A DNA stretch of 64,000 nt from contig NC_035433.2 of assembly GCF_002127325.2 (NCBI RefSeq), forward strand, positions 91,714,033 to 91,778,032. Reading direction: 5' to 3'. Source of the DNA: Helianthus annuus (lineage: Eukaryota > Streptophyta > Magnoliopsida > Asterales > Asteraceae). Made by a program: the position numbers and the translations under genes. Positions within the stretch are counted from its first letter, which is position 1. Each line of letters begins with the position of its first letter. Below, piece after piece: positions 4,735 to 62,932 of this stretch. Below the pieces are notes generated by a model, which did no database searches, was not told where the DNA came from, and saw only the letters and a program-made list of their open reading frames with translations.

Positions 4735-7042
4735 ATGCCTCCAAGACGTGACCCGCGCATGCCCACTAATGAGGCAGAACTCTAAGGGATCATTGCGGTA
4801 GCTATCGCGCAATACGCTGCTTCTCATGCAGAAACGAGTGGAAATATCTTGCATAACCACGGCAATAACAATCCACCCAATGGTAATGTTAAGTCGTTTG
4901 GGATATACTATGATACATTTGGATATTTATAGCATGTTCGCTAATACCATTTGTAAATTCTAACGTATGTGCAGGGTGTACTTACAAGCAATTTCTCGAC
5001 TGCAAGCCCGTGAACTTCGACGGCACAGGAGGTGCTGTTGCGTTTGTTAGATGGGCAGAGAAGACTGAATCTGTCCTTAGAATGAGCAAGTGTGCTCCCG
5101 AGCAACAAATGACCTACATCTCAGGGCTGTTTTTGGATGGAGCCCTATCTTGGTGGAATTTGCAAGTGCAAACTTTGGGTGAAGCTGTTGCTTATGCGTT
5201 GTCATGGAATGAGCTGAAGGAGCTCATGAGAAGGAAGTACTGCTCACGTGCTGAAATTCAGAAGCTAGAGACTGAATTCTGGCATCTGAAAATGGAAGGT
5301 TCCAAGATTGCTGAGTATGTTCAAAGATTTCACGATTTGTCCCATGTAGTGCCGTACATGGTCATACCGGAGTTCAAACGTATTGAGCGCTTTATCTGGG
5401 GATTGGCACCTCAGATCATGAGTATGGTTACTACGTCCAAGCCTACAACCATCACAGAAGCCATAGATCTCAGTGTGGCTCTTACTGAGGAAGCTATTCG
5501 ATTGAACAAGTTTTCAGTGTCTGAGCAGAAGAAGAAAGAGACTCATGTGGAGTCGTCTGGTGAAAATAAAAGGAAATTTTCAAACTTCAAGCAAGGTACC
5601 AGCAATGTGAACAAGAAGGGTGAATCAAGCACATTGGCCAGAGCTGTAACCGGTGTTGAGAACAAAGGGAAGGGTTACATGGGTACTCTGCCCAAGTGTA
5701 ATACGTGCCAGCGCCATCATACTGGCCAATGCAGATTGAGGAAGTGTGAATCATGTGGAAGGAACGACCACACGAAGGATACGTGTTGGGCCGGAACTGG
5801 TGCTGGGCGTACTGGTAATAGAGGTTATGGGAATGGTAATGGAAACCGCCAGCAGGGAGGAAACGGCGGAAATGGAAACCGGGGAAACGTTGCGAATCAA
5901 GTTGGGAATGGGAATCGCAGCCAAAACAACACTCAAGCTGGAAACGGAAGTGGTAATGGTCAAGGACCGGGCTGTTTTAACTGTGGAGAAGTTGGGCACT
6001 TTAAGAAGGAATGCCCAAAGCTGAATCAAGCCCGTGGAAGAGTGTTTAACATTGGAGCAAGGGAAGTGCGCCAGGATCCCAACGTTGTCACTGGTACGTT
6101 CCCTATAAATCGACGATTTGCATCTGTTCTGTTTGATACTGGTGCTGACTATAGCTTTGTATCGTTAGAATTTAAGAACATGCTTGGGTTAACTGCTAGT
6201 AAGTTAGATGTTCCGTACTCAATTGAACTGGCTAATGGAAAGCTAGTTGAAGCGAATGAAGTTGTCCGAGGATGCGTAATTGAGCTGGGAGAACGCGAGT
6301 TCACTTTGGATCTACTACCAGTCGAGTTGGGAAGCTTCGATGTGGTAGTAGGGATGGATTGGTTGTCAAGCAACAAAGCCGAGATTGTTTGTCACGAAAA
6401 GACCATTCGCATCCCAATAGAAGATGGAGAAACGATCGCGGTTCACGGAGAGAAGCGCGATACGCCTCTGAGAATCATTAGTTATCTGAAAGCTAGAAAG
6501 CATTTACAGAAGGGATGGGTTGCCTTCTTGGCACACATCGTGGATAAGGAAGCTGCTGAGCCAAAGATCGAAGACATTCCAGTCGTAAAGGAGTATCCTG
6601 AAGTTTTCCCAGAAGACTTGCCAGGATTACCGCCGCAAAGACAAGTCTTCCCAGAAGACTTAGTTCCAGGCGCCGCGCCTGTGGCTAAGGCTCCCTACCG
6701 ACTTGCGCCTTCGGAGATGCAGGAGTTGTCGACGCAACTTCAGGAGTTGTTAGACAAGGGATTCATCAGACCAAGTGTCTCACCTTGGGGAGCTCCAGTT
6801 ATGTTTGTTAAGAAGAAAGATCGTAGCTTTCGCATGTGTATCGACTACCGAGAACTAAACAAGCTGACAATCAAGAATAGATATCCTCTGCCGCAAATTG
6901 ATGACCTATTTAATCAGTTGCAAGGTTCAAGTTTCTACTCAAAGATCGATTTGCGATCAGGATATCATCAGTTGAGAATTCAAGAGGAAAGTATTCCCAA
7001 GACCGCTTTAGAACTCGATATGGACATTACGAGTTTCTGGTA
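4735..7042 (+). pseudogene. gag-pol: G1 gag, protease and first half of reverse transcriptase
   Basis: The likely start is the ATG at 4735 (MPPRRDPRMP). Joining 4882 to 4975 across a GT-AG intron keeps the frame into the long Gag frame ([11 protein letters not shown], then a retrotransposon Gag core with a LSWWN-type segment). A TAA at 4783-4785 stops exon 1 after 16 codons. Zinc-binding clusters lie near 5697-5790, and a CCHC knuckle C-x2-C-x4-H-x4-C at about 5974-6015. The aspartic protease motif DTGA is at 6135-6146. RT begins near 6640 ([24 protein letters not shown]). The frame is lost by a one-base deletion near 7004-7010, just before [10 protein letters not shown], and ends at a stop at 7041-7043. 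Gag would form the particle, protease would process it and RT would copy the RNA; this copy cannot do so. Confidence 0.9.
4883..4974 (+). other. Predicted 92-base intron within G1 gag
   Basis: GT at 4883 and AG at 4973-4974, with a TATGTGCAG acceptor and an AT-rich interior. Removing it joins AAT-G to GG-TGT exactly in frame and links the ATG at 4735 to the Gag body. Read through, the sequence hits stops. No transcript evidence is available here. Confidence 0.6.
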
Positions 7043-7624
7043 ATGCCGTTTGGGTTGACAAACGCGCCAGCTATTTTTATGGATTTAATGAATAGAGTTT
7101 GTAAGCCGTACCTCAACAAGTTTGTGATTGTGTTCATCGATGATATTTTGATCTACTCGAAGACGAAGGATGAGCACGGACAACATTTAAGAGCTATTTT
7201 GGAGTTACTTAAAAAAGGAAAGCTGTATGCCAAGTTCTCGAAGTGCGAGTTCCGGTTACGTGAAGTCCAATTCCTTGGACATGTGGTTAATGGAGATGGA
7301 ATCCATGTGGATCCAACAAAGATCGAAGCAATAAAGAATTGGGAAACTCCAAAGACGCCAACCGAGATTCGTCAATTCTTAGGTTTGGCTGGTTACTATC
7401 GAAGGTTCATTGAGGATTTCTCAAAAATCGCTCAACCTTTGACTTCCCTCACGCAGAAAGACAAGAAGTTCGATTGGGGAGTCAAACAAGAAGAAGCGTT
7501 CCAGTTATTGAAGAACAAGCTTTGTGACGCACCGATCTTACCGCTACCCGAAGGAACAGACTATTTCGTGGTATATTGTGATGCCTCGCGTCAAGGTTTA
7601 GGATGCATGTTGATGCAGCGATAG
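7043..7624 (+). pseudogene. pol: G1 reverse transcriptase C-terminal part and RNase H start
   Basis: The frame resumes at [15 protein letters not shown]. The RT catalytic box FIDD is at 7133-7144, followed by the thumb ([16 protein letters not shown]). The RNase H start, YCDAS, is near 7575-7590. A stop at 7622-7624 ends the frame, after which similar coding sequence continues in the same frame, so this is a nonsense mutation, not a natural end. It belongs to the same polyprotein as 4735-7042. Confidence 0.9.
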
Positions 7625-8160: not shown

Positions 8161-8591
8161 TGTTGGTGCAGTCATCTGTCGTCTTCGTCTTATGTCGATT
8201 CTCGGGTTTGTTACAGATCTGATCAAGCAAGAAATCAAGAAAATGGTAGCTGGCCGTTTGAAGTCAAAGCTGGCCGTTTGAAGAGGAGCTGTCCGTTTGA
8301 GTAGTGATAGTTTGAGAGTATCCGTTTGAATGTTAGGTGACCATTTGAAGCATGTTCAAACGGTCAGGTCATGTCTATATATAGTTCTCAAACGGTTTCA
8401 TTTGTAACGATTGGAAAACTGATACCGAGGTGCTGCCGGTAGTTTCTTGTACTGTAATCACTGTCATATCAATAGAAAAGAGGTTTAAAGTGTAATCAAG
8501 CTGTTTTAAAGTGCGTTTCTTAGTATTCCGCCTCTGAAACGTACAAGAGCTCTTCCGAACGACTCATTCAGGTCGCGAAACCGATCCTACA
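8161..8591 (+). repeat. A 5' LTR
   Basis: 431 bases, matching 15077-15507 with six substitutions. It holds six direct copies of a GTTTGA-core motif (mostly CCGTTTGAA) and two inverted copies clustered upstream of the TATA box, then CTATATATAG at 8375-8384 and a likely polyadenylation region in the right third. Confidence 0.95.
8339..8384 (+). promoter_or_regulatory. Inverted GTTTGAA motif and TATA box in A LTR
   Basis: 8339-8349 and 8355-8365 are inverted copies of GACCGTTTGAA around the five-base centre GCATG (one mismatch here, perfect at 15255-15281 in the 3' LTR). The TATA box CTATATATAG is at 8375-8384. This spacing suggests an upstream promoter element or a protein-binding palindrome. 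Confidence 0.6.
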
Positions 8592-8593
8592 AT

Positions 8594-8605
8594 TGGTATC
8601 AGAGC
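8594..8605 (+). other. A primer-binding site
   Basis: TGGTATCAGAGC two bases after the LTR, complementary to initiator tRNA-Met. The same site follows the left LTR of B, C and (on the minus strand) D. Confidence 0.9.
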
Positions 8606-8789
8606 TCAGGACAAGGAGTTCTTGCCATTTTCAGCTTGGAAATCTGATTTTCTACACCTTCTGTTCAAAACCGATACTTTTTACGGTCAAAATCAGCTTA
8701 AATCTTCACATTAGGCTCGGAATGGATAACTGACAAAGCCTTGAAAGTTTCAGACTGAAAATCAAAGTAAAATCGATAGAAAATTGTCT

Positions 8790-9113
8790 GTCCGTTTGAA
8801 ATCATTCGACAAAATGATAACGTCATAGACCTTCCGTTTGAAAAATCAGCTCCTGTCGTTTGAAACAAGGTCTATCGTTTGAACTGATCGTTTGAATCAG
8901 TATCCCATCGTTTGAAATTGGTTTCCATCGTTTGAAAGCATCCTCCGTTTGAACCTATTGTTTGAAATCAGCTTCTGTCGTTTGAAGAACACACTATTGT
9001 TTGAAAATAGATCTTGTCGTTTGAAAAGTTCACCGTCGTTTGAAACTGTCACGTTTGAAGGTCCACCGTTTGAACCAACTACCGTTTGAATCTGTGTTGT
9101 CTGTTTGAAAACT
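8790..9113 (+). repeat. A leader array of 17 GTTTGAA motifs
   Basis: Within about 320 bases I count 17 copies of GTTTGAA, 14 of them CGTTTGAA, separated by variable 8-30 base spacers, all in the same orientation, ending just before the gag ATG at 9130. The same word is clustered in the LTR of this element. Spacer sequence is not conserved, so this is not a simple tandem repeat. Confidence 0.85.
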
Positions 9114-9129
9114 GTTTAGTTTGTGAAAT

Positions 9130-12100
9130 ATGAGTACCGATTTCTACAACGCTTTTGCAACACCGTCAAGTCCAGCTGCAGTTGTTCAAGCTATGAATTT
9201 AGATAACGAGACAGGAACTACCCAAAAACCACCAAAATTAATGAGTATCGAAGAATATCATGGATGGAAAGATCGCTTTGAAAACTGGGTTCAAGCCAAT
9301 CATCTAAGATCGTGGGAGTGCATACTTAAGAAATATGTGTTACCGTGTACTGATATGCATGTTGAAAAGGAATTATCAGAATTCACGGATCAAGAATGGG
9401 TTATGTACAGAGCTGAAAAGATGATGATCAGTTTGCTTCAACAAGCCATCAAAGAAGACATCTTCATACTGCTTCAGCATGATAAAACTTCAAAGTCTAT
9501 TTGAGATGCTCTTCGTATTAAGTTTGAAGGCAGTGAAAACATGATCAAGAGCAAGAAAGCTTTACTAAAGAAAGAATTTGATCTTTTTAGTAGTTTACCC
9601 GGAGAAGATACCAAGCAGCTTATTGAACGGTACTGTCACTTAGTACGATCCATGTCGATGCTGAGTATAAAGAAGGATAGAGATGAGTGGGTAGACAAGC
9701 TAGCAGATGCGTTACCACAGAAAGAATGGGGAACGTATTTGATTATTTTTAAGAATACAGGTGTTTATGAAGGATTAACAATTGGGCAGTTTATTGAAAA
9801 GATCGAGAGTCAGAATCTGGAACAGCAGAAGATCGCTAGGATGAACAGTCCGAGCGGTCAACAGGATGTGAAAATGTACTACAAGGGTAGTATTCCAGCT
9901 CCTGAAGCTGAGAGAAGTCCGAAAATTCAAACTGCGTTCAGTGCTGGAGATTCATCTGAAAAAGCTGATCAGGGTTCGAACAACAGCAGCAGCGGGTTCT
10001 CATCATTTCCGAGTGTCAATCCTAAAGAAACAAATACAAGCTTTCAATCTCAGGGAACAAAGACAGGAAATGGATACGTGATTCAATGCAACATAGCTCT
10101 CAACCTTCCAGAAGGTCAAAGCTTCTCTGAAGACACTGCGAAAGACCACATGGCACTTCTGGGTTCTGTTCTGTTATCCTATGAAGGTCTGGTTGCTGGT
10201 CGGATCGGAAATCCTATGCTCACCAAAGAGGATTACGATCAAATAGACGCCGAAGAGATGGAACTCATGGATATCAAATGGTGTCTTGCAAGTGTTCTTC
10301 GACGTGCTGAGAAGTTCAAAACCATCACCAGGAGAAATGACTTTCTTGATGCTCATGTTTCTACTTTAGGTTTTGATAAATCTAAAGTTACTTGTTTTCG
10401 GTGCAGGGAGAAAGGCCATTTCAAGCGGGAGTGTAAAGGTAGAGAAGCCAGTGGAGCACAGAATCCATTCCGAAAAGATGACTACTGCCGTAAAGCTATC
10501 TATCAGCAAGTTGGTCAATCTCAAGAACCACAGACAGCTCATGGTAGGAAGATTGAAGACCCCAAAAGAGCATGTTTGGTAGATTTCAGCTGGAGTGATT
10601 ACATATCATCTGAAGGCAAAGCAGCTCGCATAATCGATCAAGATGATGAGAAACTACCAGAAGGTTTTAGTTGGGATATGTTTGTTGATGAAAAAGGAGA
10701 GTTCAAAGCATTCATTGCCAAGATTGTCAGAGAGCCAGATTTGTTTGCTACATGGATGAAGTCTATCGGGGTGAATGTGTCTAGTGAGAATGAAAAGTCT
10801 GTTGCGTCTGATGAAAATTCAGAAAGTACTGATGAACTTTCAGAAAGATCTGGAGAAATTTCAGAGGGTTCAGATGAAAGTTTACAGAGTTTGTGTGAGA
10901 GTGTACAGAATGAGGTTATTTCAGAAAAAGCAGTTGTATTTGATCAAACACCGTCTGATTCTGGTGTATCAGATGCTGATTCTGAAAAATCTGTACAATT
11001 TGATCAATCACCAGTTGACAGTAGCAGCGATGATGAGGAAGAAAAACATATAAATGTTGCAAAATCTCATCTTTCTCCTGAAAGTTTTCATTTCTATTTT
11101 GCAGATCGCATGAAGAAATTGAAGGAGAAAAGAGCTGCTAAAGAACGACAAAAGGAATCTGAAAGTGATGTTCAAAATGTTGAAAGTGTTGCTGAGAAGA
11201 TTACCGAAGTTGTGAAAGACGAAGAAAAGGTGACTGGAGCTGAAAAGGTGATTGAAGTTGTAAAAACAATCGAAGTTGAAAAGATTGTTGAAATCGTCAA
11301 ACCTTGTGAGAAGTGTTTAGAAGCTTGCAAGGATTGTGCTGCAAAAGATAACATAATAGCTGAGTACGAGAAGAAGAAGGAACAATTAATGTTTAATCTC
11401 AACTATGTGAAAGAATCGTATGATGTCTTGAACAAAACAGTAACTGGTCTCCAAAAGACAAACTCAGAAAGAGAACAAGCACTGACGATGATGAATGCTG
11501 TTATGATGACAAAGCAGAAGGCGATAAATTTCTACATCGAAGAAAGTGCCAAATGGAAGCAAGAGTTGGAAACGGAATAGATTGAGAATGAGAGAATTAG
11601 ACGTTTACTGCAAAGTTATTCTAGTTCTGATTATCTCATTGATCGTATTTACCCAACTGTTGCAGGTATGGAAGCTTTTCAAGATGAGAAGCCAAAGGGA
11701 AAGAAAGACTGTGGTAAGAAACCGACTGGTAGCTATAACAAGTGTCCACCTCCTATTTGGGAAGGGTATTCTCCTACAAAAATGAGGAGGAACTTGCAAA
11801 AGCAGTCAATATAAAGCTTAAAACCGACACAACTGACGTTTTACCAGATAACATTGATGTTACGTTCACCTCGTCCGATACTGATCATGAGTCCGAATTA
11901 ATCAAAAAGGTGGTCGATCAGGTGTTGGATACTGATGAGGAGTCCGAGTCTAAGTCTGGGTCTGGAGGGTCAAATTCGTCAGTCAACAGTGAAAAGTCGT
12001 CGGTCAAACGGTCTTACAGTAAAGAATTTTTGTTATCGAAGGCAGATTTGAATGATGAAACATTCGAAGTTGTCTATACTTTGAATGGTTTTGACAAAGT

Positions 12101-13092
12101 ATATTACAACAAAGAGTTTCCAATTATGAGTATTAAAACAGAATTGATTAACAAAACTTTCAAACTAATAGAGATTAATATTCCTGAATTAAAAGTTTTA
12201 AAAAATTTTGAAAAATCTAAAAAATATACTTCAAGAGTTCAACAACGTTTAAACAAGAAAAAGGGTTACAATTCTGGTTCTGGTTTTCAAAAGAAACCTA
12301 ACCAAAATTGTAGCTACAAAAAGAAAGGATTAGGCTTTGTTCCACCAGAAAAATATAAAAATGAGAAAAATTCTAAAGCAAAAACAGAATTTGTGTCAGG
12401 TGGAAGCTCGGAAGATGAACAGCAGAAACCGTTCTGGAAACAATCGAATCAAGAGTTTCTTGCTGAGAGGAAAAGGAATGGTACTGGAGTATTTCATCCA
12501 AGAGAAACTCGAACCTGTTTCAAATGCAATGAAGCTGGTCACATTGCATGGAATTGTCCGAAAAATATCAAAACAAAACAGGGAGTTTCTCAGAAACTAA
12601 AAGAAAAGGTTGTTGATATTGAACCACCAACAGAAAAACTTAAAGTTTTTGAAAATTCAACTTTTGAAGTTGGTGAGTGTTCGACAAAGAAGAGGTATGA
12701 AAAGAAAGGAAAAGACAACCAAGTATGGGTTGCTAAGCAGATTGATGTGAATGTCGGCGATGAATCTGGTTCCACAAAGCTAGAAGAGCCACAAGTTGAG
12801 AAGAAAATTTTAGTGAATGATGAAGAGTTTCCATCACTAAAATTTGAGGAAGTTAAGAAGAAAATTGGAAAAAATTGACATTTCAAATCAGTTTTACAAT
12901 GAAGAAAAAGAATTTGATGTCGAGAAAACATTCAATGGAAATGTTAAAAAGATTTTTGGGAAAATGTTGAGTGGGAGAGCTAAGGGGGTAAAAGATTTTT
13001 ACGCAACTAAAAAGGCAACATACAACCCTACTGCTCAAGAGCTAAAAGCCATCAAGTCTGAGAAGACTTGGATGGAAGTCTTCTTTCCATGA
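9130..13092 (+). pseudogene. gag: A gag-like polyprotein, broken by two stops and two frameshifts
   Basis: Starts at ATG 9130 (MSTDFYNAFATPSS). Residues 1 to about 240 match the copia-type Gag domain (UBN2 family): EEYHGWKDRFENWVQANHL, LLKKEFDLFSSLPGE and LADALPQKEWGTYL. Zinc knuckle 1 (CFRCREKGHFKREC) is at 10393-10434. A long Glu/Ser/Lys-rich tail with predicted coiled-coil character follows, then CPPPIWEGYSP, a second knuckle (CFKCNEAGHIAWNC, near 12513-12555) and a conserved end (FDVEKTFNGNVKKIFGKML to WMEVFFP). Breaks are a TGA at 9502-9504, a TAG at 11578-11580, a small deletion near 11780 and a one-base shift near 12870. The protein would coat its RNA in a particle. No enzymatic domain is present, and no second gene follows before the 3' LTR. 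Confidence 0.85.
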
Positions 13093-15076
13093 TAGTCTTA
13101 GGACTATGCCGGAGATCCCAAGTTTATATCGTGGATCAGGAATGGGCATCATTCTAGTGTTTGAAAAGCTTGTTTGAAAGATGTTGAATAGTGTTTGAAT
13201 TTTACAGGTTGAAGGACTACGCCGGAGCTTCCAGGTTGGTAAGTGCGAAGCAGGAATCGGCATACTGATTGGTAAAATGGTGATGTAGACGTAACATTCC
13301 TACAAGTGGTATTGTGTTTTTACAAGTGGTTATTTTTACAATTGGTTTAGAGGTTGCTTGATTGCAAATGGTAAATCAGGGACATTAAGTTGTACTTGAT
13401 TTACTACATTTGATAAAACTGACAAGATGATGAACCATATCCCCGTACTTAAACAAGTGGTAAACTTACAAATGGTAAACACAAACTCATTTTCTAGAAA
13501 AATCATTTTTGATTAAAACAAACTTAAGTGTTTTGAAATCTAAATGAGAAAATGGTTTGTTGAAAGGGGAGTTCAGATTGTTTATGCCTAGTGAATGGCG
13601 AATTGATGCGATTTGATATCGGTTGTCATATTTCTGTATAGTTTGGTTTAAATTTTCTTTAATGTGTTTGCATTTTAGGGGGAGTAGAAAATTTCAGAAA
13701 ATCCAAAAACATTAGAAAATTTGAAAAAGACAAAAACATGATAAAATTCAAAAATGAGTTTCGTTGTGAAAAGAGGAAATGATAGTACATCAGTGGACTG
13801 TCACAACATGCTAAAGATTTGAAATGTTAATATGTGATAAACAGTCTTACTGTGGATATGTCAGTAGGTTTTTACACATTTAGTAAATTGTGACGAGATA
13901 TAAATCTAAATTTCAAACTTGCTTTGTTCTGTGGGTTAACACAAACTTGGATATATAGGTAACCCCTGAAATCTTGTTTGAAATGTCCCTTATTCTGAGA
14001 TACTAGGTCTTTATGCTCAGGGATATCTGGGGTATTATCCCGGGACTTCTGCTGTATGGAAGTACTGACCTAGTCCCCGGATAATGCTTTCCGCAAAAGC
14101 TTGAAACATAGCTTCGCCCTCAGCATGCTGATGAAACAATAAAATTGATAGTCGCTGCTGTTGAAATAAAAAGATCCTCTAAAGGGGACACACCAAAAGT
14201 CGAGCCGTCATCTCTCTGCTGAACGGAAGTTCTGACCTGAGCTCTCACGGCCTCACATCTAACCCCTATACAGATATCAGCTGTGGTATACTCACCTGTA
14301 AGACTGAATATTGGGATTTGGATACGGGAGTATATTCAAGTAGTGGGACACACGGATAAGTTTAAGTTCTTAAAACATTAATATCGTATCTCGGATCAGT
14401 TGAACTTTGTGTGAAAATTTCAGTGGACCGATATACTGACAATCTAGGTAAATTGTTTAGAACTGAAAATGAAATCAGCTTAACGGTGTTAGTAACATGT
14501 CTCATAAACTGATATGATCCTCTTACACGATCTCACAAAAATAGTGTATGTAAATATTTCTTTACTGCATTTTATTTCTCTTATGTCACAATTAAAAAAA
14601 GATTTTGTGTGTGTTTTAGCATAAACTTTTGAAAAATTCAAAAAGATTTTCGACAACTGGTATTGAAAAGCAGAATTTCAAAATTCCAAGTGCTAAACAT
14701 GACGAGCAATATTTGAGGGGGAGTGTATGTTAGGAATTAAAAGTTTTCATGATCTAACCATAAAGTGGTTCATCTGATTGGAAAATCATTGTGTTTTTGA
14801 GAAGTGAGTTGGAGTTAGTACATGTGTTTATGTTTGATATTTTTGTGAAGAAAAGTTTACTTTGAGGTAGAGTGTTTGCAGGAGAAGATGAAAAATTGTG
14901 ACATGTGAAGGCCAGATAACGATCCTGTAGATATTGCTGAAGAACAAAGAAATACCAGCAAATCGAGAGGGGGAGTCTGAAAACAGACAGAGAGAGAGAG
15001 AAACTCGGAGGACTGATAAAGACTGAAGATTGTGAAGACTCGACACTTAAGACTCGTCAACATCTGAGGGGGAGTC
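13093..15076 (+). other. A 3' non-coding region with conserved structured RNA and polypurine tract
   Basis: No frame resembles a protein, yet much of this 2 kb is recognisably conserved in B and C. It opens with two related segments of about 50 bases (GCCGGAGAT...GGCAT at about 13109-13150 and GCCGGAGCT...GGCAT at about 13220-13263), continues with scattered ACAAGTGGT words and holds the crossing-helix structure at 14002-14087 and the small hairpin at 14221-14232. Polypurine-like GGGGAG blocks occur at about 13566, 13678, 14714 and 14968, and the functional tract GAGGGGGAG is at 15066-15074. Confidence 0.7.
14002..14087 (+). ncRNA. Putative pseudoknot-like element in A 3' region
   Basis: Helix 1: ACTAGGTC (14002-14009) with GACCTAGT (14067-14074). 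Helix 2: 14032-14045 with 14074-14087, thirteen of fourteen positions pairable (one U-G, one C-C mismatch). The order is arm 1, arm 2, arm 1', arm 2', so both helices together make a pseudoknot; otherwise they are alternative folds. Homologous structures lie at 41213-41298 (B), 61202-61287 (copy of B) and 53199-53285 (C), with compensatory changes in helix 2. Confidence 0.6.
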
Positions 15077-15507
15077 TGTTGGTGCAGTCATCTGTCGTCT
15101 TCGTCTTATGTCGAGTCTCGGGTTTGTTACAGATCTGATCAAGCAAGAAATCAAGAAAATGGTAGCTGGCCGTTTGAAGTCAAAGCTGGCCGTTTGAAGA
15201 GGAGCTGTCCGTTTGAGTAGTGACAGTTTGAGAGTGTCCGTTTGAATGTTAGGTGACCGTTTGAAGCATGTTCAAACGGTCAGGTCATGTCTATATATAG
15301 TTCTCAAACGGTTTCATTTGTAACGATTGGAAAACTAATACCGAGGTGCTGCCGGTAGTTTCTTGTACTGTAATCACCGTCATATCAATAGAAAAGAGGT
15401 TTAAAGTGTAATCAAGCTGTTTTAAAGTGCGTTTCTTAGTATTCCGCCTCTGAAACGTACAAGAGCTCTTCCGAACGACTCATTCAGGTCGCGAAACCGA
15501 TCCTACA
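15077..15507 (+). repeat. A 3' LTR
   Basis: Starts TGTTGGTGCA directly after the polypurine tract and ends CGATCCTACA, followed by the ATTAT duplication. The inverted GTTTGAA pair is perfect here (15255-15281). Confidence 0.95.
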
Positions 15508-16756: not shown

Positions 16757-19700
16757 TGTGACAACCCTCACAAATTCAGGTATCCGTACACTTAATTAAT
16801 ATTAAATTTGTGCTTAATGAATGTGCTTGATTAAAACTGTGATTAAACTGCTTTCTGTTTTCGGTTACATACATACATATGCATCACACCTTATACTGTC
16901 ACTCCATTTATTACACACAAACATTAGTGACAAACTTGATGCACAAAGCACAGTTAGCACACTGAGCGGATAACCCAGAAAACATGCTGACAATGCCAGC
17001 ACCTAGACAGACAATGTCATTGAGGCCAGTATGAGTCCGGAATAGAGTACTACACTAGTAGGGAGTGTAGGGAGGTGAGGACCAAAAAACTGCGTCACTA
17101 GGTGATAGTTACAGTGCCGGGAAGTGCTTAAAACACACTTTAAATGCAGAATTCTGCACTCATTAAATGCAGCATTTTAAAATACTAGTAAAGCGCAAAA
17201 ATATGTCAGAATGGTCTTGTATACTTTCCTAAGTGTCGGGGATTAATTGTGTTGCTAAAATACATATGAAAGTCACTTTAGGGAATAATTAAACACTTTA
17301 ACGGGACAAAATCTAACTGGATAACCGGACATTACCCGAAACACTAAATTTTTGCCAGACACATTGTTTTAGTATTTCTTGGCTTGTCGTGATCCCCGAA
17401 CACCCTAACACCCACTAAAAAGTAACTAACTAACATATGTAAACACATTACTTGAAATCTAACTTACCATTACACTTTAGTTACAAAATGTTTCCCTTTA
17501 CCCTCCCCCCCCCCCTTAGCCGAAATCGGTCCCAAGTGGACCCACGATATCATTTTTACCATGCTTCGTAATCTCCTACTTGATTTAATTCCAATTGTTT
17601 AATGGGTGTTGCTTGTGAGAATGACGAAAAGATGAAGACATGTTCTATAAGTATGGACCAAGATCACAACCATTTCCATTCATTATCACACACCCTCACT
17701 TCACTCACTCTCTCTCTCTCATTTTTGGCTCCCCCAAACCGAAACCATCACCACCACTTAACATCATCATCTTCTTCATTATCAAGTTCCATTCAAAGCT
17801 TTGAAGGTGATCCATGGAGGTTGCATCTTGAGGAGCATTCAAAGGAGCTTTGTTCTAGTCTTTTTCATCATCTTTTCCCATCATCTTCACACTAGAATTT
17901 CTACCCTAGCCTTGTGCTAGTAGTAAGTCTTATTACACCTTGCTTCATTTAGTTCTTAGTCAAGATATGTAGTATGATGATATTGTTTAAATCACAAAAG
18001 AACAAGAATACTAAAAGATGTTAAAACAAGAATAATGAACATAAAAGTTTACTTGAAGATGAAATATGACTAGTTTGATGTTGTTATGAGTATGTTGTTA
18101 TTTTATGATGATTCTTGGTTGTAGGAGGATAATCACCATAAAAGTCTTGTTAAATAAATTTAGAAGTATGATGTAACAAGAATAGGAAGTGGTTATGTAC
18201 TACATAAATAACCACCTTCTAAGTTAGTCATGAACTTGAATAAAACGAGATTTTTCTAGAACATAAGTGAACTAGTAGATTGGTGACCATGTTGATTCAA
18301 GTTTACTAGAAGCTTTTTCTAAGTAAACCAAGTTAGAAAAGCGTTTTTTTTTTGGAAAAATCATAACTTTACATAAATTTACACTATTTTTATAAATAAA
18401 ATAAATGTAAGAACATTTATTTACAAGAAGAGTTCAATAAGTTAATTTTTGTAAATATTGATTACAAGTTGTGAAAACGTAACTCGTTTAAGAAAGTGAT
18501 TTTTAACGAAATAAATACACTTTGGAAGGTAACTAAGCCTACTAAAGGCTTCACTAAGTTACTACGCGTTTTCGGGAAATATCAAGTTCATGACTAGAGT
18601 ATAACACACATATTTTTGCTCTTGGTAAAGTAAGAATTGATTATTGATGATTGTTTGTTGATTTTGAAAAGAAAACGATATGCTAGTAAGCATGGACACT
18701 CCCGTTTTAGGGGAAACTCTGGCGAAATTTTCCAAAAATCTCTAGACTTAGAAAAATTATTTTCTAACAAGTATTTACAAAATATATTGACTTGTTTTTC
18801 GAAAGTAAGCTGCGCCATAAAATTGATTACAAAACTCCAAAGTGTCGGAGGTGGGTTTTCTAAAATAAAGGCGAATAAATATATATTAAAAATATATATT
18901 TGATAGTAAAACACTTGTGTGATTATATTATTTATTTTGGGGTAAGTATTATTTGGTTACACAATATGAAAATATATTATTTTTGAGAAAAATATATATA
19001 TTTTGGGTTATATGGATTTTGATAAATATGTTGAATGTATTTTTCTTAAGTGGGACTTAAAAATATATAATGTCAATACTCTAAATCACAAGATACATGT
19101 ATAAATACCCCCATCCTTGGGAAGGAAATACACATATAGATACTTGAGAAGTGTAGATACGAAATAGTTTCCTAACTATTTTCCTAAATACAAGGGTTAG
19201 TTAAAATAATTATTATTTTAACAAGTATAATACCAAAGTAACGCAACTCAAAACACTAAACCCTAAGCCAAGGCACGGCCCATTCGTCTAATAGACATTG
19301 GTACGTGTAGGTCGTCACGCAGCAGTTCGAGTTTGAGATTGACGTTTCTGGATACGCACTTCAGTGAGTTCATGTCCCCTTTTTCTCTTTACTGTTTTCA
19401 GTTTTATACTTCGGGGGTGAAATACATGCGACAATTATTACAAACATTTATTTACATGGTATGGTTAGCGTAGGGAGGGTTTATACTACTAGATCATGTG
19501 AGGGGTGGGTACAACACTCGAGGCCATTAATCCTCGTTGTAGGACCGAGGGACACAAGAGTGATAGATCTATTTGGGTGTAGCGAGCCCACACCCGTGAG
19601 GCCGGGGAGGCCCATAGAGGTGACTGTGTCTTACAGCCCAAGCCCGGTAACAAATTTGCTAGGTTTGAGTTTCCCTGCACTTTCTCACACATACAAGTGG

Positions 19701-20190
19701 CTTTTCAACCCATTGGTGATCTCTTTTTCCTTATTGCTACATACCAGGGACTTTAACACATACTTTGAAGGTTTATACATACTCACTTTTACATGAACTC
19801 GCTCAACTTTTTGTTGTTTCTTCAAACTACATGTATTTCAGGAAATTAAGGGATCTGGCAAGGTATGCATCTCCGTCAAGCTGCGTAAGGAAAATGATGT
19901 CATCCGAGTTTCGGGATTGTGACTTTTGCCTGGACGAGTCACAAGTCTTAAACTGTGTTTTTATTTCATGTCTTTCGTTATGTCGTTGAACATGTTTTCA
20001 TTATGTCATGGTTGTATTTGGTTTGTCATATCAACTTTTAAAAACAATGTTGTCGTGTTAACTTTTCAAACTTGAATGAATGGATGAACATCAAGGTTTT
20101 ATTTTCATATAGCATTGTTGTGATAATTGCTATGGTATTAAGAAGTCACACCAAATAAACCCACGCTTCCGCAAAATCCAGGGTGTGACA
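16757..20190 (+). repeat. G1 3' LTR, complete
   Basis: 3,434 bases, starting TGTGACAACCC and ending GGGTGTGACA. It contains a C-run near 17506-17515, a CT-rich microsatellite near 17705-17720 and the TATA-like box at 19100-19107. The open frame at 17602-17895 lies wholly within the LTR and is probably not a gene. Confidence 0.93.
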
Positions 20191-20578
20191 GGCTTACCAT
20201 CAGCCACTTCTACAACGTGTCTGTCTTCAAGAGGCATCTGGGTTAAACAGAACAGAGACGAAGCGATTAGTTACCTAAAAACATGCAAGCTACCATGTTG
20301 CTATTATGCCTGGCGTCACCTACACCAATTCTAAATGCCCTTCCACGAGCACCACTTCCAATGTTTTTGTTACTGTTACGAGGATTCCCAATATTGTCAT
20401 GGTTCCCTGGGTTGTTGACATCTTGACTTATCAACGGCCGATCCTTGTCAAAGTCACCTTCATGGCTTCATCTTTATATTAGAAGTTATGATTTGCGAGT
20501 ACCTTGTTGTCGCTGTGGCCATTGCCTCTAAGGTTGTTGCTTTAAAAACAGATCCTTGCGATCTTTTTCTTTTAGGGT
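20191..20578 (-). pseudogene. G3 gag-protease remnant (minus strand)
   Basis: Read on the minus strand, about 20400 down to 20276 encodes a segment like GARGRAFRIGVGDARHNSN, the same Gag-protease linker seen in G1 ([17 protein letters not shown]). Near 20240-20196 a retropepsin-like HVVEVADGK segment follows. The active-site region between them is missing and frames are broken. G1 cuts it on the left, G2 on the right. Confidence 0.65.
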
Positions 20579-30833: not shown

Positions 30834-30971
30834 TGTTGGTGCATATGTAAGTCGACTTTGTCTTGTATCGAGTCTTGTAATAGATTGAATAGATCAAGTC
30901 ATGTAGTTCGAAAGAAATGGCAGTTTCACACGAAATGACAGTTTCATGCGAAATGACATTTCGTGCGAAAT
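30834..30971 (+). repeat. C 5' LTR, left piece
   Basis: 138 bases matching the start of 54414-55033, ending inside a CATTTCG/CGAAATG motif where B inserted (GAAAT, 30967-30971). Confidence 0.9.
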
Positions 30972-33103: not shown

Positions 33104-33247
33104 ATCTCCCCCTTGGATATTGCCGTAGTCAATCTCGTAGTGAAACTCGTAGCGACTTGTCTTTCTCTCTCTCTTGAGTTCCTCTTGCTTGAACAGAATC
33201 CCGGTGGATCTGTCTTCAGCTTCCGTTGCTCTTTTTCTTCAGAATCT

Positions 33248-40257: not shown

Positions 40258-42514
40258 AGTCTAAGGACTACGCCGGAGATCCCAAGTTTATATCGTGGAT
40301 CAGGAATCGGCATCATTCATGTTTTAATGAGTTTGTATGAAAGCTTTTGAAAATGTTTGAATGATTACAGGTGAAGGACAACGCCGGAGCTTCCAGGTTG
40401 GTAAGTGTGAAGCAGGAATCGGCATCCTGATTGATAAAGTGTTGTATGTAGATGACTCATTCCTACAAGTGGTATTTGTTTGTTATACTTACAAGTGGTT
40501 ATTCTTACAATTGGTACAGAGGTTGCTAAATTGCAAATGGTAAATCAGGGACATTAAGTTGTACTTGATTTACTACACATGATATAAATAGACAAGATGA
40601 TGAACCATATCCCCATACTTAACAAGTGGTAAACTTACAAGTGGTAAAAACAAACTCATTTTCTGGAAAAATCATTTTGATTAAAACAAACTTAAGTGTT
40701 TTGAAATCTAAATGAGAAAATGGTTTGTGATAGGGGGAGTTCAGATTGTTTATGCCGAGTGAATGGAGATTAGATGCGATTCGATGTCAGTTGTCAAAGT
40801 TTTGTACAGTTTGTTTTACATTTCATGTTTCAAGTGGGTCAAGAGCTTAGTTATTTTCAAATTTCCTTTGAAATGTGTTTGCATTTTAGGGGGAGTAGAA
40901 AATTTTCAGAAAATCCAAAAACATTAGAAAATTTGAAAAAGACAAAAACATGATAAAATCAAAAATGAGTTTTGTTGTGAAAAGAGGAAATGATAGTACA
41001 TCAGTAGGCTGTCACAACATGCTAAAGAAATGTAAAGATAAAATGTGATAAATAATCTCACTGTGGATGTGTCAGTAGGTTTTTACACATTTAGTAAATA
41101 GTGACGAGATATAAACATAAAAATTCAAACTTGCTTGTTCTGTGGGTTAACAACTTCTTGGATATATAGGTAACCCCTGAAATCTTGTTTGAAAGGTCCC
41201 TTATTCTGAGATACTAGGTCTTTATGCTTAGTGATATCTGGGGTATTATCCCGGGACTTCTGCTGAATGGAAGTTCTGACCTAGTCCCCGGATAATGCTT
41301 TCCGCAAAAAGCTTGAAACATAGCTTCGCCCTCAGCATGCTGATGAAACAATAAAATTGATAGTCGCTGCTGTTGAAATCAAAAGATCCTCTAAAGGGGA
41401 CACACCGAAAAGTTGAAGCCGTCATCTCTTTGCGTATACGGAAGTATCGACCTGAGCTCTCACGGCCCTCGCATTTTAACCCCTAAACAGATATCATCTG
41501 TGGTATACTCACCTCTAAGACTGAATATTGGGATCTGGATACGGGAGTATATTCAAGTAGTGGGACACACGGATAAGTTCAAGTCATTAAAACATTAACA
41601 TCGTATCTCGGATCAATTGAACTTTGTGTGAAAATTTAAGTGGACGAATATACTGACAATCTAGGTGAATTGTTTAAAACTTAAAATGTAATGCAGCTTA
41701 ACGGTGTTGGTGACATGTCTCATAAACTGATATGATCCTCTTACACGAACTCGCAAAAATATTGTCTGTAAATATTTCATTTCTGCATTCTGTTGTTTCT
41801 ACAAGTGGTGTCATTTATTTTCTTTCAGAGAATCCAAAAAGATTTTGTGTGTGTTTTAGCATAAACTTTTGAAAAAGTCAAAAAGATTTTCGACAACTGA
41901 TGTTGGAAAGCTGATTTTCAAAATTCCGAGTGCTAAACATGATGACATTGTTGTGAGGGGGAGTGTGTCTTGAACATCAAATGTGTGTTTTTAAATCAAC
42001 AATTGGTTCATCATAGAGAAAGTGATTTGAGGGAGAGTCAGTGTTGGTGCATATGTTTATACTCAAATTGTTAAATGTAAATCTTACTTTGAGGTAGAGG
42101 TTTTGCAGGTTAAGTTGAGCCAGGTTAATTCAATCCTGAGAGTTAAGCTGAACGAAAGCCAGGTTTCCGATACCTGAGGACTCTAATTGAAGAAAGCCAG
42201 GCTGATCGATCCTGAAGAGTTTGTGAACAGAGCTAGTGCCAGGTTCCGATTTTGTGGACAGTGTTAAAGCCAGGCATCGATATTGGACTTGTGAAAGCCA
42301 GACAATGATCCTGAAGCAGATATTACTGAAGAACAAAGAAATGTCAGCAAATCGAGAGGGGGAGTCTGAAGATATTCAAATAAATATTGTTAAAGGAGAG
42401 TCTGTTGATGAAGATAGAAAGAGAGAAGCCCAGAGACTGATCAAGACTGAAGAAGTGAAGACATGACATTGTCAAAGACTCGATGGACGACTCGTCAACA
42501 TCTGAGGGGGAGTC
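40258..42514 (+). other. B 3' non-coding region
   Basis: Homologous to 13093-15076 of A. Two GCCGGAG...GGCAT segments (about 40273-40315 and 40385-40425), ACAAGTGGT words at about 40465-40640, the crossing-helix structure (41213-41298), the small hairpin (41436-41447), GGGGAGT blocks near 40735, 40890, 41957 and 42358, and the polypurine tract GAGGGGGAG at 42504-42512. No protein-like frame. Confidence 0.7.
41213..41298 (+). ncRNA. Putative pseudoknot-like element in B 3' region
   Basis: Helix 1: 41213-41220 (ACTAGGTC) with 41278-41285 (GACCTAGT). Helix 2: 41243-41256 with 41285-41298. Sequence nearly identical to A; the identical duplicate is at 61202-61287. Confidence 0.6.
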
Positions 42515-52389: not shown

Positions 52390-54413
52390 AAATCCTGACT
52401 TACCGGAGCTCCCAAGTTGGTAATCGTGGAGCAGGAATCGGCATCATTTTTGAAATATGTTTGTTTGGAAAGCCTACAAGTGGTAAAATTAAAAATTGTC
52501 ATATTTCAATTTACAAATGGTATTGTTGAGAAGTGAACATACAAGTGGTTGTTCCTACAAGTGGTTAATCAAGGTCATTAAATTGAACTTGATTTAACTT
52601 TCATACAAGTTGTTGAAAAGGGGGTTTCATTCATTGTAAAGAGGAAAGAAATAAAGTGATGAACATATCCCCTAACCTACAAGTGGTTGGTGAATTTCAA
52701 CAAAACTAATTTTCCGGAAAAACCATTTTGATTAAAATAAACTTAAGTGTTTTGAAATCATAATGGGAAAATAATTTGTTGTCAGGGGGAGTTCTGATTG
52801 TTTACGCCAAGTGGATAGAGAATTGAAGCATTTTGCATCAGTTTGTCAAATTTTCTTTACATGGTTTTGAATTTTAGGGGGAGTAAGAAATTTCAGAAAA
52901 TCCAAAAACATTAGAAAATTTGAAAAACGACAAAAACATGAGAAAATGAAAACGAGTTTTGTTGTGAAAAAGAGGAAATGATAGTACATCAGTGGACTAT
53001 CACAGCACGCTAAAGATTTGGAAAGTCAAATGTGATAAACGGTCTCATTGAGGATGTGTCAGTAGGTTTTTATACATTCAGTAGATTGTTTTGAGATATA
53101 AACCTAAATATCAAGATTTGCTTATCTCGTGGGGACCATCTCTCGGATATATGGGTAACCCCCGAAATCTTGTTTGAAAGACTTTCTATTTCTGACATAC
53201 TAGGTCTTTGTGCGTGATGATATCTGGGGTATTATACCAGGACTTCTGATTTTGCGGGAGCAATAGCCTAGTCCTCGTATAATACTTTGCATAGCTTTAA
53301 TCATAAAGCCCACCCTCAGCATAAAAAATAATGAAACATTGAAAATGCTAATCATGTGCTGTTGAAGAAAAGATCCCCAAACGGGACACACCGAAAGATG
53401 AGCCATCATCTCTTTGTCTGAACAGAAGTTCTAACCTGAGCTCTCATGGTCTCGCATTACCCGTTTACAAATATCATTTGTGTACATTCACCTGTAAGAC
53501 TGAATATAGAAGTCTGGATACGGGAGTATATTCTGAGGTGGTACACGCGAATAAGTTTAAGTGCTTAAAACACTAATCTCGTATCTCAGAACAGTTGGAC
53601 TTTGTGTGAAAATTTAAGTGGATCAGTATACTGACAATCTAGGTGAATTGTTTAGAACTTAAAATGATTAAAGCTTAACGGTGTTAGTGATTTGTCTCAT
53701 AAACTGACATGATCCTCTTACACAAATTTACAAAAATATTGCATGTAAATATTTCTTTACTACTTTTAAAAATCCAAAAAGATTTTAAGTGTGTTTTAGC
53801 ATAAAATTTTTGAAAATAGAAAAAGATTTTATTTCATCTTATTTTCGACAACTGGTGTTGAAAAGCTGATTTTCAAAATTTCGAGTGCTAAACATGACGA
53901 CAACTGGGTTGGGAGAGTGTGTTTGAAATGTTAAAATGATTTTAATGAAATACCAAATGTATATGTTTCAATTACAAGTGGTTAGTAGAGATTAAAATTG
54001 TTAAATTTTAATAATTATAAAAACTTATGTTTTGGGTAGAGATTTGTGCAGGTCCCCGTGTTTGATCCTGTTGCTACGAAGAGCCAGGAATCATTCTTGA
54101 ACCTGTGAAAGTGCTATGTCAGATTGCGATCCCGGAACAATTTAAGGGGGGAGTCTGCTAGCAAAGGGGAGTCTGAAGATAGTAGAATCAGTGTCAAATC
54201 CTGCTGTCTGAGCCAGCTGCTGATCCTGAAGAATTTATTGGATCAACATCCAAGGGGGAGGTTAGCTGCAGAAGCTGATAAAGAGAAGAGAGAAGATTGA
54301 GGATGCTTACAATGTCAGACACTTTGGAAAGAGCATGTAGACAGATCAAGACTGAAGACTTGCCAAACTGAAGACTCGACACCGAAGACTTCGTCAACAT
54401 CCAAGGGGGAGTC
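52390..54413 (+). other. C 3' non-coding region
   Basis: Homologous to the A and B 3' regions. It has one ACCGGAGCT...GGCAT segment (about 52400-52444), ACAAGTGGT words (52476-52690), the crossing-helix structure (53199-53285), a GAAC/GTTC hairpin (53420-53431), GGGGGAG blocks near 52785, 52877, 54147, 54166 and 54252, and the polypurine tract AAGGGGGAG at 54403-54411. Confidence 0.7.
53199..53285 (+). ncRNA. Putative pseudoknot-like element in C 3' region, covarying
   Basis: Helix 1: 53199-53205 with 53266-53272 (six Watson-Crick pairs plus one U-G). Helix 2: 53229-53242 with 53272-53285, thirteen of fourteen pairable with the same C-C mismatch as A and B. Relative to B, two pairs change on both sides (C-G to A-T and G-C to A-T) and a T-G becomes T-A. 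Confidence 0.65.
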
Positions 54414-60246: not shown

Positions 60247-62932
60247 AGTCTAAGGACTACGCCGGAGATCCCAAGTTTATATCGTGGATCAGGAATCGGC
60301 ATCATTCATGTTTTAATGAGTTTGTATGAAAGCTTTTGAAAATGTTTGAATGATTACAGGTGAAGGACAACGCCGGAGCTTCCAGGTTGGTAAGTGTGAA
60401 GCAGGAATCGGCATCCTGATTGATAAAGTGTTGTATGTAGATGACTCATTCCTACAAGTGGTATTTGTTTGTTATACTTACAAGTGGTTATTCTTACAAT
60501 TGGTACAGAGGTTGCTAAATTGCAAATGGTAAATCAGGGACATTAAGTTGTACTTGATTTACTACACATGATATAAATAGACAAGATGATGAACCATATC
60601 CCCATACTTAACAAGTGGTAAACTTACAAGTGGTAAAAACAAACTCATTTTCTGGAAAAATCATTTTGATTAAAACAAACTTAAGTGTTTTGAAATCTAA
60701 ATGAGAAAATGGTTTGTGATAGGGGGAGTTCAGATTGTTTATGCCGAGTGAATGGAGATTAGATGCGATTCGATGTCAGTTGTCAAAGTTTTGTACAGTT
60801 TGTTTTACATTTCATGTTTCAAGTGGGTCAAGAGCTTAGTTATTTTCAAATTTCCTTTGAAATGTGTTTGCATTTTAGGGGGAGTAGAAAATTTTCAGAA
60901 AATCCAAAAACATTAGAAAATTTGAAAAAGACAAAAACATGATAAAATCAAAAATGAGTTTTGTTGTGAAAAGAGGAAATGATAGTACATCAGTAGGCTG
61001 TCACAACATGCTAAAGAAATGTAAAGATAAAATGTGATAAATAATCTCACTGTGGATGTGTCAGTAGGTTTTTACACATTTAGTAAATAGTGACGAGATA
61101 TAAACATAAAAATTCAAACTTGCTTGTTCTGTGGGTTAACAACTTCTTGGATATATAGGTAACCCCTGAAATCTTGTTTGAAAGGTCCCTTATTCTGAGA
61201 TACTAGGTCTTTATGCTTAGTGATATCTGGGGTATTATCCCGGGACTTCTGCTGAATGGAAGTTCTGACCTAGTCCCCGGATAATGCTTTCCGCAAAAAG
61301 CTTGAAACATAGCTTCGCCCTCAGCATGCTGATGAAACAATAAAATTGATAGTCGCTGCTGTTGAAATCAAAAGATCCTCTAAAGGGGACACACCGAAAA
61401 GTTGAAGCCGTCATCTCTTTGCGTATACGGAAGTATCGACCTGAGCTCTCACGGCCCTCGCATTTTAACCCCTAAACAGATATCATCTGTGGTATACTCA
61501 CCTCTAAGACTGAATATTGGGATCTGGATACGGGAGTATATTCAAGTAGTGGGACACACGGATAAGTTCAAGTCATTAAAACATTAACATCGTATCTCGG
61601 ATCAATTGAACTTTGTGTGAAAATTTAAGTGGACGAATATACTGACAATCTAGGTGAATTGTTTAAAACTTAAAATGTAATGCAGCTTAACGGTGTTGGT
61701 GACATGTCTCATAAACTGATATGATCCTCTTACACGAACTCGCAAAAATATTGTCTGTAAATATTTCATTTCTGCATTCTGTTGTTTCTACAAGTGGTGT
61801 CATTTATTTTCTTTCAGAGAATCCAAAAAGATTTTGTGTGTGTTTTAGCATAAACTTTTGAAAAAGTCAAAAAGATTTTCGACAACTGATGTTGGAAAGC
61901 TGATTTTCAAAATTCCGAGTGCTAAACATGATGACATTGTTGTGAGGGGGAGTGTGTCTTGAACATCAAATGTGTGTTTTTAAATCAACAATTGGTTCAT
62001 CATAGAGAAAGTGATTTGAGGGAGAGTCAGTGTTGGTGCATATGTTTATACTCAAATTGTTAAATGTAAATCTTACTTTGAGGTAGAGGTTTTGCAGGTT
62101 AAGTTGAGCCAGGTTAATTCAATCCTGAGAGTTAAGCTGAACGAAAGCCAGGTTTCCGATACCTGAGGACTCTAATTGAAGAAAGCCAGGCTGATCGATC
62201 CTGAAGAGTTTGTGAACAGAGCTAGTGCCAGGTTCCGATTTTGTGGACAGTGTTAAAGCCAGGCATCGATATTGGACTTGTGAAAGCCAGACAATGATCC
62301 TGAAGCAGATATTACTGAAGAACAAAGAAATGTCAGCAAATCGAGAGGGGGAGTCTGAAGATATTCAAATAAATATTGTTAAAGGAGAGTCTGTTGATGA
62401 AGATAGAAAGAGAGAAGCCCAGAGACTGATCAAGACTGAAGAAGTGAAGACATGACATTGTCAAAGACTCGATGGACGACTCGTCAACATCTGAGGGGGA
62501 GTCTGTTGGTGCACTACATCTGTCGACTTCGTCTTGGATCGAGTCTTAGATTACATTGTATAGATTAGGGCACATTTTACGAGAAAATAGGAAGTGTGTA
62601 GTAGTTAGCATGCTGATTTCGCTCATAGGGACAGGTAGGTGATTTCAGGCGAAATCACATGTTCTGATTTCGCTCATGTGGACCCTGTGTCTCTTGGAGT
62701 GAAATCTAGAACCTATATATAGGTGTCCATGAGCGAAATCACATAACAGTTGTACGTATTCCACGCCGAAGTGCTACCGGTGTGAAGACTGCTTGTAATT
62801 GAGTTCTAATCAATACAATCAGTAGTTAAAGTGAAGAGTCAGCTGTTTCTAGCTTTGTTTCTTGTTATTCCGCACCTATAACAAAGTAGAACTTCTCTGA
62901 ACGACTCATTCGGGTCAGATCACGATCCTACA
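60247..62932 (+). mobile_element. Copy of B 3' region and 3' LTR
   Basis: Same as 40258-42943: crossing-helix element at 61202-61287, polypurine tract at 62493-62501, LTR at 62504-62932, followed by GAAAT (62933-62937). Confidence 0.9.

What the first reader, a model, noticed from the sequence alone, without database searches (positions are those of the whole stretch)
14002..14087. Pseudoknot-topology element with double compensatory changes in the 3' region of Gag-only elements
A, B and C share two crossing helices. In helix 2 (14032-14045 with 14074-14087; 41243-41256 with 41285-41298; 53229-53242 with 53272-53285), going from A/B to C, a C-G pair becomes A-T and a G-C pair becomes A-T, each by changes on both arms, and a T-G becomes T-A; the single C-C mismatch is shared. 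Helix 1 (ACTAGGTC/GACCTAGT) is kept as six pairs plus a wobble in C. The strand order makes a pseudoknot or a two-state switch. It lies in non-coding sequence that would otherwise be free to drift, so it may guide packaging, dimerisation, RT or translation.
Basis: partly seen in the sequence, partly recalled or inferred. Interest (0 to 1): 0.86.

Follow-up and report, generated by a model that had tools for sequence, protein, structure and literature searches.

The report
Structured RNA domain in sunflower retrotransposons
Three related sunflower-type jumping elements carry a roughly 300-letter stretch of non-coding RNA whose folded shape has been kept while its letters changed, which suggests an undescribed RNA signal that elements lacking their own copying enzymes may use to get copied.

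Summary
Helix 2 has 17 nested pairs plus the shared C·C mismatch and is one arm of a conserved RNA domain of about 300 nt (A 13998-14303, B 41209-41516, C 53195-53496), closed by a long-range helix. In a sequence-only alignment 99.0% of 201 pair cells are standard pairs and 15 of 67 pairs changed on both sides. Re-folding 1000 shuffled alignments never reached the observed energy (z -8.3) or 15 double-changed pairs. Without helix 2 the rest stays significant. The domain holds two copies of one hairpin; a model of the first copies finds the second in all three elements and nothing else below E = 1. The pseudoknot (helix 1) shows no covariation and its 5' arm has a competing nested partner; it stays open. 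The hosts look like Gag-only, Sirevirus-type elements of a Helianthus genome. No Rfam family matches. Most likely it is a bivalent protein-binding RNA, perhaps for packaging by Gag; that function is inferred. Only three independent copies were available.

The parts
13998..14303 (+). Whole structured RNA domain, copy A
41209..41516 (+). Whole structured RNA domain, copy B
53195..53496 (+). Whole structured RNA domain, copy C
61198..61505 (+). Copy B' of the domain, inside an identical duplication of B; not independent and not counted
   Evidence: 100% over 6,561 bases; coordinates by the constant offset of 19989
14001..14008 (+).
   Evidence: nested MFE folds of A, B and C; outer part not kept in B
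14294..14300 (+). P0 3' strand (ACCTGTA)
14012..14029 (+). P1 5' strand, long-range closing helix (16 pairs, 2 double-changed, 1 broken cell in C)
14271..14290 (+). P1 3' strand
14030..14047 (+).
14072..14089 (+). P2a 3' strand
14048..14071 (+). First copy of the hairpin motif: UCUG/ACCU internal loop and P2b stem capped by GGAA (GGGA in C); 4 of 5 P2b pairs double-changed
14121..14160 (+). P4 (14121-14125/14156-14160, invariant) with inner hairpin P4b (14137-14140/14144-14147, 1 double-changed)
14183..14267 (+). P5 (14183-14187/14263-14267): one G-C pair becomes C-G in copy C
14202..14254 (+). P6 (14202-14208/14247-14254, one bulge): 2 double-changed, 1 broken cell in B
14212..14241 (+). Second copy of the hairpin motif (P7a, UCUG/ACCU internal loop, P7b capped by GGAA; AGAA in C)
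41426..41456 (+). Second copy of the hairpin motif in copy B
   Evidence: E 0.0011 with a model built from first copies only
53410..53440 (+). Second copy of the hairpin motif in copy C
   Evidence: E 0.00034
14002..14074 (+).
8161..15507 (+). Host element A: Gag-only LTR retrotransposon; LTRs 8161-8591 and 15077-15507, TSD ATTAT, PBS word at 8593, terminal PPT 15067-15074

Best explanation
It is a cis-acting, independently folding RNA domain of about 300 nt in the 3' non-coding region of a family of Gag-only, Sirevirus-type LTR retrotransposons in a Helianthus genome. A long-range helix (P0/P1) closes it into a multi-branched fold. The fold displays two copies of the same hairpin: a GNRA-like cap, a stem of 4-5 pairs, and a UYUG/RCCU internal loop over another stem. 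Shown here: structure, strand, conservation, twin hairpins. Inferred: the two hairpins are a bivalent protein-binding site, most likely for the element's own large CCHC Gag. That would mark the genomic RNA for particles that also carry reverse transcriptase and integrase supplied by a helper element.
For: Re-folded shuffles: energy -74.9 against -38.4 (sd 4.4), 0/1000 reach it; 15 double-changed pairs against a mean of 4.07 and maximum of 11; 5 broken cells against a mean of 16.3 (1/1000 has 5 or fewer). Counted on a sequence-only alignment: 99.0% of 201 cells paired, 15 of 67 pairs double-changed; slid controls give 33-44% paired and 0-1 double changes. Energy beats 300/300 shuffles for A+C, B+C and A+B alone and for the domain without P2 (z -5.3, 9 double changes, 0/300 reach). 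Twin hairpin: a model of the three first copies finds the second copies at E 6.6e-10, 3.4e-4 and 1.1e-3, then nothing below E 1; all six hairpin sequences keep the 4-bp cap stem and the outer closing pair through changed letters (30/30 cells). Sense strand and non-coding. Gag of about 1,250 aa with zinc knuckle and no pol domain in the 3 relatives scanned, nor in the Pfam column of the 120 relatives listed of 189 (proteins longer than 1.75 times the query are not candidates, so full Gag-Pol could not appear). LTRs of A and B are 98.6% and 97.0% identical, so these elements moved recently.
Against: The packaging role is untested. Three independent copies only, all in one window; no homologue DNA was found. 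The nested Gag-type element D (32709-37135) has 98.7% identical LTRs yet shows no match to the domain, so the domain is not needed by every such element here. Packaging signals of Ty1 and retroviruses lie near the 5' end (passages of PMC4974528 and PMC5035971). Single-sequence stability is modest: z -2.6, -3.1 and -3.0; 3 of 21 control windows reach -2.6 or lower (-2.6, -3.1, -4.0). In real-sequence alifold controls z falls as low as -5.8 outside the domain. On sub-parts the signal is weaker: A+B alone has 3 double changes, which 5/300 shuffles reach; P3-P7 alone has z -2.8, with 1/300 as low.
Confidence: 0.37

Rival explanations
1. The domain is an RNA export, stability or localisation element that recruits host proteins through the two equal internal loops, comparable in role to the constitutive transport element of simple retroviruses.
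For: Position between the coding region and the 3' LTR; two copies of one internal loop. The CTE is described as a long stem-loop with two internal loops (PMC7551171, passages). Direct studies of plant LTR-element RNA export have not been made (PMC12786077, passages).
Against: Fold differs: multi-branched, twin loops on two separate arms. No host factor is known. Splicing of these RNAs was not examined here. No Rfam family reached its cut-off.
Confidence: 0.22
2. Pseudoknot or two-state switch: AGGTC upstream alternates between the closing helix P0 and the ACCT of the hairpin loops, switching the RNA between translation and packaging or reverse transcription.
For: 8-bp match in A and B, 7 pairs with one wobble in C; isolated duplex -11.0, -11.0 and -9.1 kcal/mol; chance 0.002 for the loop, 0.029 for the rest of the domain. 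The 5' arm is invariant in the three copies.
Against: No covarying pair. P0 is in the nested fold of all three. Helix 1 shares AGT with P2a and G14067 with P2b; without AGT the duplex is worth -5.6, -5.6 and -3.7 kcal/mol. ACCT of the second hairpin is conserved too, so conservation of the loop needs no helix 1. On checking I raised this rival from 0.13 to 0.15, because the folder used cannot score pseudoknots and so does not count against it as much as I first wrote.
Confidence: 0.15
3. The domain acts in reverse transcription: it lies between copies of the polypurine tract and controls which tract primes plus-strand synthesis, or pauses the enzyme.
For: AGGGGGAG occurs at 13677, 14716, 14968 and 15067 in A, on both sides of the domain.
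Against: Several tracts are usual in Sireviruses (about 4 per element, PMC2829016, passages), and the passages read describe no domain of this kind with them. That template RNA is degraded before plus-strand synthesis is recalled knowledge.
Confidence: 0.1
4. A captured host non-coding RNA, or a translation enhancer, carried as cargo.
For: No known origin; the surrounding block of about 1 kb is conserved.
Against: No Rfam match in the window at the gathering threshold, none for A at E 5, five for C far below their cut-offs. A host source could not be searched for because no plant genome was reachable.
Confidence: 0.1
5. DNA-level palindrome maintenance (template switching), or chance.
For: Template switching can make arms complementary by copying.
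Against: The C·C mismatch persists; P1 arms lie about 240 bases apart; four pairs vary through G·U states, which pair in RNA but not as Watson-Crick DNA; shuffles of the whole domain never reach the signal.
Confidence: 0.03

Closest known systems
TR-GAG non-autonomous LTR retrotransposons, including those expressed in sunflower (PMC9784723, PMC11728184, passages)
   Same: Two LTRs, an internal region coding for Gag only, sunflower host
   Different: The passages read name no RNA structure. The active sunflower TR-GAG of PMC11728184 are assigned to Galadriel, while A, B and C look like the Copia/Sirevirus type
Sireviruses (Ty1/copia), PMC2829016 (passages)
   Same: Large CCHC Gag, iMet-type PBS, several AGGGGGAG tracts with the last starting exactly 10 bases before the 3' LTR
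   Different: No pol; TC/TG instead of AT/TG at the junction; the passages read describe a short inverted repeat around the tract/3' LTR junction, not a domain like this one; 'pseudoknot' and 'packaging' do not occur in its main text
Ty1 5'-terminal pseudoknot domain (PMC4974528, passages; PMC5454406, search listing)
   Same: Multi-helix cis-acting RNA of an LTR element, with a Gag binding site
   Different: It is at the 5' end, and the review says a role of that pseudoknot in packaging could not be shown; here the domain is 3' and the pseudoknot unproven. No sequence or model relation was tested
Constitutive transport element of simple retroviruses (PMC7551171, passages)
   Same: Two internal loops; the 3' non-coding position of the CTE is recalled
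   Different: Single long stem there; multi-branched domain with two separate arms here; plant host

Membership tests
TR-GAG (Gag-only LTR element) | Two LTRs with target-site duplication | tested here: met
   A: LTRs 8161-8591/15077-15507, TSD ATTAT. B has two LTRs (its TSD was not examined). C: only a 3' LTR was recognised in the window.
TR-GAG (Gag-only LTR element) | Codes for Gag and no pol domain | tested here: met
   7 of the 9 ORFs of 150 aa or more in A, B and C (B' and D left out) were scanned: only zf-CCHC and Retrotran_gag_2, two ORFs with no hit. The 6 of 6 plus-strand frames of 40 aa or more in A 12879-15076 gave nothing above a cut-off. Decayed pol below ORF size was not sought.
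Sirevirus | AGGGGGAG tract starting 10 bases before the 3' LTR, several copies | tested here: met
   A 4, B 5, C 4 copies; terminal ones at 15067, 42505, 54404
Sirevirus | AT/TG at the tract-LTR junction | tested here: not met
   TC/TG in A, B and C; the nested element D has AT/TG. The paper gives AT/TG for 20 elements, not as universal.
Sirevirus | Reverse-transcriptase phylogeny | not testable with these tools
   No pol in the elements
Any Rfam family | Covariance-model match | tested here: not met
   0 in the window at gathering; 0 for A 13960-14420 at E 5; 5 weak ones for C 53150-53610, all far below cut-off
H-type pseudoknot | Two crossing helices that form together | tested here: inconclusive
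   Helix 2 is supported by covariation; helix 1 is complementary in all three copies but has 0 of 8 covarying pairs, and no pseudoknot-aware folder was run
Packaging signal | Needed in cis for particle uptake; bound by Gag | not testable with these tools
   Needs an experiment
Constitutive transport element | Raises nuclear export of unspliced RNA | not testable with these tools
   Needs an experiment

The most novel reading that the evidence does not exclude
A previously undescribed RNA family lets Gag-only plant retrotransposons capture the enzymes of other elements. Twin hairpins present a bivalent docking site. The conserved upstream AGGUC can pair either with the closing strand or with the ACCU of the hairpin loops, so the domain is a switch that commits each transcript to translation or to packaging.
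Probability: 0.1. Interest if true: 0.82.

Novelty: new variant of a known kind. Interest (0 to 1): 0.62.

Why it matters
How plant elements without pol are chosen by a helper's particles is, to my knowledge, open, and a 2025 review says that RNA export of plant LTR elements has not been studied directly (PMC12786077, passages). A defined domain of about 300 nt with two equal hairpins gives a concrete object for probing, deletion and pull-down. The many Helianthus Gag relatives (427 and 189 hits) suggest that many more copies exist, which would make a strong covariation test possible.

Tried and rejected
Coding sequence: rejected. There is no codon phase in the domain, while gag shows one, and stop-to-stop frames around the domain reach at most 71 aa in A and 76 aa in C. 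A protein search with the 76-aa minus frame of C found no candidate.

Homologue DNA elsewhere: none found. A 17-mer gave 11 viral and 27 prokaryote loci; a sensitive comparison of these 38 loci with the window showed only short local matches (around the 17-mer at most 38 bases at 82%, best E 0.002). Two longer patterns gave 0 in viral contigs. Plasmids and phages gave 0 at E 1e-5. The B Gag protein gave no related viral contig. None of these is a plant collection.

Hammerhead or other known RNA: no Rfam hit; the CTGATGA word in A and B is absent from the aligned place in C.

Results against my reading: single-sequence z is only -2.6 to -3.1, and the minus strand of C scores lower still (-3.8). 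Plus-strand 120-nt windows away from helix 2 lie between -2.1 and +2.0. Alifold windows over 12540-13160 reach z -4.0 to -5.6 on the plus and -3.8 to -5.8 on the minus strand. Of the 38 control rows not overlapping the domain, the largest number of double changes was 11, with 22 broken cells (50 shuffles per row, which keep columns but not dinucleotides). The nested fold of C alone holds 47 of 66 model pairs (A 59 of 67, B 65 of 66). P5-P7 alone: 5 double changes, reached by 1/300 shuffles. Hairpin P3 was left out of the pair counts because its register differs between A/B and C.

Full report
What was checked. The two helices of the finding are at the stated coordinates in A, B and C, with the stated changes. 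The fourth copy in the window belongs to a 6,561-base stretch identical to 37451-44011 and was not counted, so the statistics rest on three copies. Element A is complete: LTRs 8161-8591 and 15077-15507 with target duplication ATTAT. A and B are 84% identical over their shared 5 kb; C is 73% (coding) to 78% (3' region) identical to A. The three share a conserved block of about 1 kb downstream of gag.

Is it chance? In the block (1,044 compared columns, 18.8% A-C divergence) helix 2 is the longest stem shared by A and C. Column shuffles gave no stem as long in 2,414 tries, and letter permutation gave 2 in 2,483 with two double changes.

The larger structure. RNAalifold on the surrounding sequence showed that helix 2 is one arm of a domain. 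On a 319-column alignment made by sequence only, 67 pairs in nine helices give 99.0% paired cells and 15 double-changed pairs: P1 2, P2a 2, P2b 4, P4b 1, P5 1, P6 2, P7b 3. Controls give a mean of 5.1 for shuffled partners and 0-1 when partners are slid. These include a G-C to C-G exchange in P5, and four changes private to B: one in P2b, one in P6 and two in P7b. Broken cells: one in P1 of C and one in P6 of B. Because the model was chosen on the same data, the fair test is to re-fold each shuffled alignment: 0 of 1000 reached the energy or the number of double changes, and 1 of 1000 had as few broken cells. In energy the signal stays for each pair of copies and after removing P2 (0/300 each); A+B alone has only 3 double changes, which 5/300 reach. 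As a control on real sequence, 48 rows of 320-column windows along gag and the 3' region were treated alike. The exact domain window has the lowest z (-7.4), the most double changes (15) and the fewest broken cells (5). The 38 rows that do not touch the domain reach -5.8, 11 and 6 respectively, in different rows.

Strand and coding. Sixteen cells are G·U and two are C·A on the plus strand, and four pairs vary through G·U states, so the selected molecule is the sense RNA. Substitutions show no codon phase. Paired positions change nearly as often as unpaired ones (A-C 20% against 25%): shape is kept, not letters.

Twin hairpins. The loop of helix 2, which looked free, is a stem of 4 pairs with cap GGAA, GGAA and GGGA (A, B, C), kept through changed letters. 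The same unit, UYUG - stem - four-base cap - stem - RCCU closed by another stem, occurs a second time in each copy. A pattern scan of both strands found the closed form twice in each of A, B, C and B' and nowhere else in the window; 0 closed in 20 mononucleotide shuffles of one strand. A covariance model from the three first copies finds the second copies (E 6.6e-10, 3.4e-4, 1.1e-3) and nothing else below E 1 on both strands of the window, filters off. Calling the cap GNRA-like is a sequence reading; C's second cap is AGAA and does not fit GNRA.

Helix 1. It never covaries. Its 5' arm pairs with ACCT(GTA) beyond P1 in the nested minimum-energy fold of all three copies; B does not keep the outer part of that alternative. 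The folder cannot form pseudoknots, so helix 1 was not weighed against P0. Both are conserved words and neither is proven. A chance probability of 0.002 for the 8-bp loop match keeps the pseudoknot open.

Host. Gag relatives are Helianthus: the C query is 98% identical to a H. annuus protein (427 hits, 120 listed, 119 of these named as Helianthus, one unnamed). The B query gave 189 hits, of which 120 were listed, all named as Helianthus and none with a pol domain in the Pfam column; that search scores only proteins up to 1.75 times the query, so a full Gag-Pol would be missed. Three relatives of 1,248-1,291 aa hold only Gag and zinc-knuckle families above cut-off. Sirevirus-type traits are several AGGGGGAG tracts, the terminal one ten bases from the LTR, and an iMet-type PBS; the tRNA assignment of the PBS is recalled.

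Function. Nothing here measures function. A bivalent, 3'-placed, element-specific RNA fits a protein docking site. Gag is the simplest partner because these elements seem to code for nothing else. That D, a recent Gag-type element nested in B, shows no match to the domain means such a site is not universal. Export or stability is the main rival.

Novelty. No Rfam family matches. Eight literature searches (open-access library only; listings, with passages of ten papers seen) showed no report of a conserved multi-helix RNA domain in the 3' region of plant LTR retrotransposons. What they did show is the short inverted repeat at the tract/3' LTR junction of Sireviruses (PMC2829016, passages) and hairpin-like structures in maize transposable elements (PMC10760457, listing only). 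Subscription papers were not searchable.

Noticed in passing
57440-64000 and 37451-44011: 6,561 bases 100% identical, reaching the window's end: a very recent duplication or an assembly artefact.
   Followed up: partly
13677-13797 (also in B and C): A-rich block just after an AGGGGGAG tract, about 95% identical between A and C and more conserved than gag. 120-nt windows over its start (13620, 40830, 52840) fold unusually well on the minus strand in all three copies (z -3.6, -4.4, -2.9; plus strand -2.0, -1.5, -1.7).
   Followed up: no
32709-37135, minus strand: Gag-type element D nested in B: LTRs 98.7% identical, tract AGGGGGAG with AT/TG, about 145 bases between gag ORF and the 3' LTR, no match to the RNA domain.
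   Followed up: partly
13996-14188 and 41207-41399: A and B are 96-99% identical here but about 84% overall, which hints at recombination or gene conversion between lineages.
   Followed up: no
30834-30971 and 43044-43333: Pieces of a C-type LTR on both sides of B: B seems to have inserted into an older C-type LTR.
   Followed up: no
1-2318 and 17872-20191: 97.5% identical repeats around a Ty3-type gag-pol ORF (5010-7043), PBS-like word at 2320: A is probably nested in a Ty3/gypsy element with about 2.3-kb LTRs.
   Followed up: no
12540-13160: End of the gag region also gives low alifold z (plus strand -4.0 to -5.6; minus strand -3.8 to -5.8) with 5-11 double changes and 7-22 broken cells; possibly composition, possibly a second structure.
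   Followed up: no
14121-14130: Perfect 10-base palindrome CAGCATGCTG in A and B, lost in C.
   Followed up: no
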